From Candidatus Coproplasma stercoravium (GTDB lineage: Bacteria > Bacillota > Clostridia > Christensenellales > Borkfalkiaceae): DNA of 59,956 nucleotides. A program made the position numbers and the translations under genes. The stretch covers positions 1 to 59,956 of the forward strand of contig DVFR01000030.1 in the NCBI GenBank assembly GCA_018713165.1. The letters are read 5' to 3'. This document shows positions 1,396 to 36,142 of the stretch, in pieces. Numbering within the stretch: the first letter of the stretch is position 1; each line of letters starts with the position of its first letter. The notes beneath the pieces were generated by a model. It was not told the origin of the DNA and searched no databases. It was given only the letters and a program-made list of their open reading frames with translations.

Positions 1396-1568
1396 GTTCA
1401 CAAAAATGCCGCGCAGGCCGTGCGCGGCATTTTTCGTGAGTTTGAGGAACTAAGTTCCTCTGTCGGCGATTATTAAGTGCCCACGATTATATAATCGCCG
1501 ACATTCACTTCCAGTGAGCCTGCTGCCGCAGCAAATTGAGTCTTGCGGCGCAAGGGAACCTTGCTTGC
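1396..1568 (+). ncRNA. Candidate structured RNA element, copy A
   Basis: A chain of hairpins directly downstream of rplQ. (1) GTTCAC-AAAAAT, a 7-bp GC stem, then ATTTTT-C-GTGAG (1396-1440), terminator-like. (2) GAGGAAC/GTTCCTC (1444-1460). (3) A perfect 12-bp stem, 1462-1473 with 1491-1502, whose loop carries TTAAGTGCCCAC. (4) TCACT/AGTGA (1505-1517). (5) CTGC/GCAG (1520-1531). (6) CTTGC/GCAAG (1542-1554). Then AGGGAACCTTGCTTGC. Copy B at 35884-36057 has nearly the same length, the same loops and linkers (CGTGAGTTTGAG, CAAATTGRGTC, TGCTTGC) and different but still complementary stems. I see no open reading frame in it. It could be a 3'-UTR RNA, a small RNA or a non-autonomous mobile element; I do not recognise the family. 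Confidence 0.55.
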
Positions 1569-1589
1569 AAACGTGATTATATTAAACAA

Positions 1590-1640
1590 TTCACAAAAAT
1601 TCCGTGCAAGCCGTTGCACGGAATTTTTCGTGAGTTTGAG
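1590..1640 (+). repeat. Partial copy C of the structured element (first hairpin only)
   Basis: TTCAC-AAAAAT, then the stem TCCGTGCAA/TTGCACGGA around a GCCG loop, then TTTTTC-GTGAG-TTTGAG. The outer boxes and the GCCG loop match copies A and B, while the GC-rich stem has a third, unrelated but still complementary sequence. After TTTGAG the similarity stops, so hairpins 2-6 are missing here. Confidence 0.5.
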
Positions 1641-17467: not shown

Positions 17468-17482
17468 CTTATAAAAGTTTTT

Positions 17483-17551
17483 GCGCAGTCGCGTTAAGTG
17501 GTGCCGGTAGGACAGCCGGCGCACGAAAGGTAAAACCTGCGGTGGCTGCGC
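17483..17551 (+). ncRNA. Tetrahydrofolate (THF) riboswitch aptamer
   Basis: Stem P1 GCGCAG/CTGCGC (17483-17488 with 17546-17551) encloses GCGTTAAGTG, the highly conserved THF aptamer box, then the hairpin GTGCCGG/CCGGCGCAC with loop TAGGACAG, then CGAA, a short AGGT-AAAA-CCT hairpin, and GCGGTGG. Order, spacing and conserved boxes match the class I THF riboswitch of Firmicutes. It precedes folC-folE-folP-folB/K and is followed by a terminator, as expected for feedback control of folate synthesis. Confidence 0.85.
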
Positions 17552-17572
17552 GCGTCCCCCATTATGTTTTGT

Positions 17573-35883: not shown

Positions 35884-36057
35884 GTTCACAAAAATTTTAG
35901 CTCTGGCCGAGAGCTAAATTTTTCGTGAGTTTGAGGGGCCAGCCCCTCTTTGCGCAATCTTAAGTGCCCACAAAGAGTATGATTGCGCAAATTCACCCTT
36001 GGTGAGCCCGCTTTCGCGGCAAATTGGGTCGCGCTGGCGCAGGGAAACCCTGCTTGC
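35884..36057 (+). ncRNA. Candidate structured RNA element, copy B
   Basis: Same architecture as copy A at 1396-1568. Hairpin 1: GTTCAC-AAAAAT outer strand, GC stem TAGCTC/GAGCTA around TGGCCGA, then ATTTTTCGTGAG. Hairpin 2: GAGGGGC/GCCCCTC. Hairpin 3: 11-bp stem 35949-35959 with 35981-35991, loop starting TTAAGTGCCCAC. Hairpin 4: TCACC-CTT-GGTGA. Hairpin 5: CCGC-TTTC-GCGG. Hairpin 6: GCGC-TG-GCGC. Then AGGGAAACCCTGCTTGC. Compared with copy A the stems differ by paired substitutions (e.g. T-A to C-G in hairpins 4 and 5) while loops and linkers are kept. It starts 4 nt after the guaA stop and may also be its terminator. Confidence 0.55.
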
Positions 36058-36142
36058 GCAATATTATTATGTAGAATTCTGCGTCGCAATACTGTGTTGC
36101 GACCCGTGTCGGTCTTGTGCGTGTCAACTATTTAAACTTACT

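What the first reader, a model, noticed from the sequence alone, without database searches (positions are those of the whole stretch)
1396..1568. Multi-hairpin element with paired substitutions between two copies: candidate new structured RNA
Copies at 1396-1568 and 35884-36057 are 173 and 174 nt long and share loops and linkers (TTCAC-AAAAAT, GCCG loop, CGTGAGTTTGAG, TTAAGTGCCCAC, GTGAGCC, CAAATTG.GTC, TGCTTGC), while the intervening stems differ and yet remain complementary: hairpin 1 GCCGCGC/GCGCGGC vs TAGCTC/GAGCTA; hairpin 2 GAGGAAC/GTTCCTC vs GAGGGGC/GCCCCTC; hairpin 3 12-bp vs 11-bp stems of unrelated sequence; hairpins 4 and 5 with T-A to C-G exchanges. A third, partial copy (1590-1640) has yet another paired stem. 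Conservation of pairing without sequence is the hallmark of selection on RNA (or hairpin DNA) structure. I recognise no known family, and no protein is encoded inside. Both full copies sit 4-15 nt behind the stop codon of a housekeeping gene.
Basis: seen in the sequence. Interest (0 to 1): 0.82.

Follow-up and report, generated by a model that had tools for sequence, protein, structure and literature searches.

The report
Folded-DNA repeat with possible triple helix
Uncultured bacteria of the genus Coproplasma carry dozens of copies of a 190-base non-coding element whose hairpins keep their pairing while their sequence changes, and the pattern of change points to folded DNA, perhaps with a small triple helix, rather than to a new RNA gene.

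Summary
Pairing without sequence conservation is strongly supported: 41 of 47 pairs change on both sides and no shuffle reaches the observed values. The RNA reading is not supported: over all stems G-T and A-C are equally rare (134 and 134 of 7573 cells), the strands fold equally well (+ lower in 77 of 158), and between co-directional genes 46 copies are sense and 46 antisense. Helix P6 alone has a G-T excess. Hairpin modules are swapped between copies and orientation flips at orthologous sites. Beyond the finding, a short strand after hairpin 3 covaries in mirror register with the purine arm of hairpin 2; read on the complementary strand it fits the code of a purine-motif DNA triplex in 755 of 786 cells. 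No mobilising enzyme and no clean empty site were found. Best reading: a BOX-like mobile DNA element whose strand folds compactly.

The parts
1396..1587 (+). full copy 1 of the element (helices P1-P3 and P5-P7 plus AT-rich tail)
   Evidence: R1 match 1396-1588, E 1.6e-51
1398..1439 (+). P1: TCAC/GTGA base plus variable A/T- and G/C-rich stem
1444..1460 (+). P2: purine arm GAGGAAC, loop TAA, pyrimidine arm GTTCCTC
1462..1502 (+). P3: 9-bp stem (1462-1470 with 1494-1502) around the large conserved loop
1506..1510 (-). putative third strand of the triplex (purine-rich on the minus strand). In this copy one position breaks the rule (P2 of the GGAAC type, third strand of the AAAC type)
1520..1531 (+). 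P5, followed by the conserved CAAATTG-N-GTC linker (1532-1542)
1543..1570 (+). P6 (TTGC/GCAA) enclosing P7 (GCAAGG/CCTTGC)
1571..1587 (+). AT-rich tail, weakly conserved; tandem copies are about 22 nt apart because of it
1588..1640 (+). partial third copy: P1 and GTTTGAG only, then unrelated sequence
35884..36077 (+). full copy 2 of the element
35933..35948 (+). P2 of copy 2 (GAGGGGC/GCCCCTC)
35994..35998 (-). third strand of copy 2; obeys the triplex rule

Best explanation
The element is a non-autonomous dispersed DNA repeat of the Ca. Coproplasma group, built of exchangeable hairpin modules like the pneumococcal BOX repeats. What is conserved is the fold of DNA, most probably a single strand exposed during replication or mobilisation. 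Shown: many copies, modular make-up, covarying stems, presence or absence at orthologous gene ends, module differences and orientation changes at orthologous sites, no overall G-T bias, no strand bias in folding. Inferred: the six helices form on the minus strand, and the purine-rich stretch 5' of P3' lies antiparallel in the major groove of P2 as a triplex of about five triplets in the purine motif (G.G-C, A.A-T, T.A-T, with T at C-G or T-A interruptions). The P1 and P3 loops may touch. This compact object is what an unidentified mobilising or integrating enzyme recognises. Inserted copies then drift and recombine with one another and carry no general function for the neighbouring genes.
For: Family and copy number. 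Covariation: 158 copies; 40 sequences; 401 cells changed on both sides against 136 in shuffles; score 0.523 against 0.190 shuffled and at most 0.177 slid. DNA rather than RNA: over all stems 134 G-T and 134 A-C of 7573 cells; P3 (seven outer pairs), P5 and P7 hold 13 G-T and 23 A-C of 2671; common stem alleles 260 Watson-Crick, 4 G-T, 3 A-C, 3 other; mean MFE of the strands -73.728 and -73.725. Third strand: of parallel offsets -66 to +65 only 62 fits; rule noted, then met in 109 of 115 cells of 29 new copies; all 207 copies 755 of 786 (0.961) against at most 0.861 in 1000 shuffles within P3 alleles. Published code A(T).A-T and G.G-C: PMC4666352. Sister-genus short forms lack P2, P3 and the third strand together. 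Turnover.
Against: P6 shows more G-T than A-C (35 and 9 of 594 cells in its four pairs), as RNA would. In MFE folds the element's strands still have 5.8% and 5.4% G-U, against 11% in only 9 tRNAs, so that contrast is twofold and the control small. No transposase family tested tracks the family, and no empty site with clean ends or a target duplication was found. Five triplets are few and 41 nt of P3 intervene. On the 29 new copies alone the shuffle within P3 alleles reaches the observed value. Window copy 1 breaks the rule at one position; columns 54-60-116 do not follow it. The rule allows two letters at A-T and so is easier to meet than the pyrimidine code.
Confidence: 0.55

Rival explanations
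1. A structured RNA: the plus or minus strand is transcribed and the RNA fold is what selection sees, for example a mobile non-coding RNA or a 3'-UTR element. A plus-strand pyrimidine-motif triple (C+.G-C, U.A-U) would then join P2 and the third strand.
For: Loops and linkers are conserved while stems covary; 64 of 87 copies behind a same-direction gene begin within 15 nt of its stop; most third-strand cells also fit the pyrimidine code (573 of 786); P6 has a G-T excess.
Against: No G-T excess over all stems and equal folding of both strands; 46 to 46 sense and antisense between co-directional genes; the pyrimidine code fails at columns 50-64-112 (A.A-T in 122 of 158); no Rfam match.
Confidence: 0.22
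2. A repeat spread by copying, whose arms are kept complementary by template switching between the arms (quasi-palindrome correction, recalled), with no selected fold.
For: G-T and A-C are removed alike; discrete stem alleles and module swapping.
Against: Template switching equalises inverted repeats, not mirror repeats (established knowledge, recalled), so it would not make the coupling of P2 and third strand; it does not explain conserved loops or the P1-P3 loop coupling.
Confidence: 0.12
3. A transcription terminator or insulator spread and kept for the benefit of the upstream gene.
For: P1 often has an A-run before and a T-run after a G/C stem; 5' ends abut stop codons; relatives without the element often show a terminator-like hairpin after rplQ (my reading).
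Against: The T-run of P1 is not longer in copies just behind a stop than in all others (p = 0.59; p = 0.17 against copies on the start side); 45% of the 76 copies near a stop lack a run of 4 or more.
Confidence: 0.07

Closest known systems
BOX, RUP and SPRITE repeats of Streptococcus pneumoniae (PMC3049150; abstract and two sections read)
   Same: Short non-coding intergenic repeats (125 BOX, 110 RUP, 30 SPRITE in one genome), BOX modular with boxB optional, predicted stem-loops, restricted to a few related species, judged parasitic and now slow to move
   Different: Other sequence and modules; BOX and RUP have terminal inverted repeats and target duplications, which I did not find here; no triplex mentioned in what I read
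Intrastrand triplex repeats: BoxC/PIT/TM-ECO of E. coli and others (PMC4666352; abstract, section 16 and passages read)
   Same: Dispersed bacterial repeat; purine-motif triplex within one DNA strand
   Different: There 9-nt stems with short loops between the three strands and a set consensus; here about 5 triplets with a hairpin between duplex and third strand, and sequence that covaries
REP/BIME elements and RAYT (Y1) transposases (PMC2817692; search listing only)
   Same: High-copy intergenic palindromes
   Different: Of the eight genomes at the copy cap only G000 and G075 have a Y1_Tnp match; G002, G014, G016, G046, G054 and G069 have none
OMEGA/HEARO and IS110 bridge RNAs (recalled)
   Same: Roughly 200-nt multi-stem elements tied to mobile DNA
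   Different: None of the eight genomes at the copy cap has a match to the TnpB-type domain PF07282 or to IS110 PF01548; IscB itself was not searched

Membership tests
structured RNA class | covarying helices | tested here: met
structured RNA class | strand-specific fold with G-U pairs | tested here: not met
   (all stems); exception P6, 35 G-T against 9 A-C
structured RNA class | transcription of one strand | not testable with these tools
   no RNA-seq; orientation to genes balanced
BOX/MITE-like dispersed repeat | many short non-coding intergenic copies, modular | tested here: met
   crude ORF calls overlap 15 of 159 copies
BOX/MITE-like dispersed repeat | terminal inverted repeats and target duplication | tested here: inconclusive
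   none seen at the guaA and other sites, but flanks too diverged
BOX/MITE-like dispersed repeat | a transposase acting in trans | tested here: inconclusive
   four families tested, none tracks copies; others not tested
purine-motif intrastrand triplex | third strand antiparallel, code A(T).A-T and G.G-C | tested here: met
   code from PMC4666352; T at C-G and T-A is recalled
purine-motif intrastrand triplex | folds as a triplex in solution | not testable with these tools
   needs NMR, CD or footprinting
IS200/IS605 or REP-RAYT | Y1 transposase in the genomes that carry many copies | tested here: not met
   18 of 61 genomes have one; of the eight at the copy cap 2 do (G000, G075) and 6 do not

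The most novel reading that the evidence does not exclude
A natural single-stranded DNA with RNA-like architecture: six helices, a covariation-supported purine-motif triple helix and a loop-loop contact, kept by selection as the substrate of an unknown mobilising enzyme in an uncultured lineage. It would be the first DNA tertiary structure found by comparative sequence analysis alone (the priority is my recall, not searched).
Probability: 0.33. Interest if true: 0.88.

Novelty: new variant of a known kind. Interest (0 to 1): 0.62.

Why it matters
Small dispersed repeats are common, yet what their structure is for is open. Here the family is large and diverse enough that comparative analysis can set a DNA fold against an RNA fold, predicts a triplex with a precise base code, and marks which letters to change. 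That makes the question of whether cells use folded single-stranded DNA as a recognised object directly testable.

Tried and rejected
Coding sequence: crude ORF calls overlap 15 of 159 copies, but the insertions, deletions and freely varying hairpins do not look like coding sequence; I did not test this further. Rfam at gathering score and up to E 10: nothing credible. Mobiliser: of the eight genomes at the copy cap, 2 have Y1_Tnp, 3 a reverse transcriptase domain, 0 the TnpB zinc domain and 0 IS110. Autonomous versions with an ORF between the 5' and 3' halves: 33 of 36 pairs of halves lie 5-479 nt apart, with other repeats between in those that I read; the three longer ones (1111, 1512, 1675 nt) I did not examine. 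Recurrent protein neighbours: the 25 largest clusters look like ordinary genes of orthologous loci (my reading). Plasmids, phages, viral contigs: no match. Terminator hypothesis: no context effect. Hairpin 4 as a stem: not supported. P1-P3 loop coupling as Watson-Crick pairs: I saw no register that fits all classes (by eye). Literature: no paper holds Coproplasma, repeat and RNA together, none Christensenellales, repetitive element and hairpin; one, PMC4666352, holds five of six terms on triplex, hairpin and transposon.

Rows dropped: 103 of 107 copies used (length filter); 158 of 159; 140 of 158 in the permutation (gaps); 185 of 207 (no gene call or no GTGA found); 42 of 828 cells (P2 unpaired or gapped); columns 147-176, not a real pair, left out of the sum.

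Full report
What was checked. They fold far better than shuffled sequence. The genes just upstream are a 50S ribosomal protein L17 gene (TIGR00059) and a GMP synthase gene, 14 and 4 nt away.

What the family is. Copies recur through the genome and the genus. I took 76 stretches around matches in eight genomes and 82 stretches from a pattern scan of named genomes; of the 80 whose titles are listed, those that name a genus say Candidatus Coproplasma and the others say uncultured Clostridia bacterium. The scan of viral contigs gave nothing, nor did plasmids or phages. In 200 genomes of the order it matches 11: six of this genus (G000 included) and five of one sister genus. Among the sister-genus matches that I aligned, four distinct ones are short (110-114 nt): P1, P5, the CAAATTG linker, P6/P7 and tail, without P2, P3 and the third strand; others are 157-192 nt with a different middle part that I did not analyse. 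A short form with only P1 and P6/P7 also occurs after guaA in G046 and, downstream of a long copy, in G002 (my reading).

Structure. Mutual information on 158 copies gives P1, P2, P3, P5, P6 and P7. On alignment A1, 41 of 47 pairs have a change on both sides and 87.4% of cells are paired; neither 500 shuffles nor sliding the partners approaches this (P5 is misaligned in part of A1 and so underrated there). The stems come as discrete alleles found in several genomes.

DNA or RNA. Over all stems (without columns 147-176, not a real pair) 6901 cells are Watson-Crick, 134 G-T, 134 A-C and 404 other. In P3 (seven outer pairs), P5 and P7 the counts are 13 G-T and 23 A-C of 2671. Among common alleles 260 cells are Watson-Crick, 4 G-T, 3 A-C and 3 other. 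Mean folding energies of the two strands are equal, the plus strand being lower in 77 of 158. Between co-directional genes 46 copies are sense and 46 antisense (crude gene calls). An RNA gene should show a strand; this family as a whole does not. Against this: P6 has 35 G-T and 9 A-C of 594 cells, and in MFE folds the two strands have 5.8% and 5.4% G-U against 11% in nine tRNAs, a twofold contrast with a small control.

Third strand. Columns 112-115, after P3, covary with P2 columns 50-53 at one constant offset, parallel to the purine arm. I found no antiparallel pairing that explains this; mirror symmetry is what a triplex needs. On the plus strand it would be the pyrimidine motif, which fails where A faces A-T (122 of 158 at columns 50-64-112). 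On the minus strand it is the antiparallel purine motif, for which a published study gives A(T).A-T and G.G-C and says that it cannot form in RNA (PMC4666352). T at C-G and T-A interruptions is from recall. I wrote this rule down before looking at 29 further copies. They brought new combinations (AGCGGC with CACACC, GGGAAAC with CCCTTCC) that obey it; 109 of 115 cells fit, 0.948, against a free-shuffle mean of 0.601 and maximum of 0.739. Controlled for P3 allele the new copies alone are too few to tell, since one shuffle reaches the observed value; all 207 copies give 755 of 786 (0.961) against a mean of 0.821 and at most 0.861. The pyrimidine code fits 573 of 786. Window copy 1 breaks the rule at one position, its orthologue in G046 does not: between the two, P1 and P5-P7 are identical while P2, P3 and the third strand differ, as module exchange would do.

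Evolution. At orthologous sites modules differ as blocks, and at three sites (L191 against L043 and L212, L224 against L225, L201 against L039) the element has the opposite orientation. After guaA a full-length or near-full-length element is found in 4 of 30 genomes and a short form in one more (two of the 30 loci end within about 130 nt of the gene). After rplQ it is found in 5 of the 29 loci that could be read; the thirtieth, of G002, gave no full read. Both sets are the genomes with the most similar protein. Other repeats are inserted in loops of the element. Of 87 copies behind a same-direction gene, 64 start within 15 nt of the stop, while median distances at the 3' end exceed 200 nt. I have no proven reason for this. 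The P1 T-run does not depend on context.

Mechanism. I therefore think that the element spreads as DNA, that its folded strand is what an enzyme recognises, and that copies then decay and recombine. The enzyme is unknown: of the eight genomes at the copy cap, 2 have a Y1 transposase, 3 a reverse transcriptase domain, none TnpB or IS110. The closest known things are BOX-type repeats (PMC3049150) and intrastrand triplex repeats (PMC4666352). It works like a mixture of both; I found no sequence link to either.

Noticed in passing
1957-2000 of the window; also inside P2 loops of copies in L047, L054, L075, L085, L089, L092, L102: A second dispersed repeat family with its own varying hairpins (GCTCGGTCACCG, GCTCATCTC); in several copies it sits in the P2 loop of the element.
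   Followed up: partly
207 copies, P1 loop and P3 loop: The apical loops of P1 and P3 change together in about five classes, not as Watson-Crick pairs in any register I saw; perhaps a loop-loop contact.
   Followed up: partly
L291 (G049, after rplQ) against window 1590-1640: A plain terminator-like hairpin after rplQ in a relative shares its 10-bp stem with P1 of the partial copy here: remnant of P1 or captured terminator.
   Followed up: no
17474-17563: THF riboswitch (Rfam RF01831).
   Followed up: no
L036, L038, L074, L076, L082: Right ends of some copies are replaced by other palindromic repeats (GACGAATGAGCC..., GACGAGCGGCAC...).
   Followed up: no
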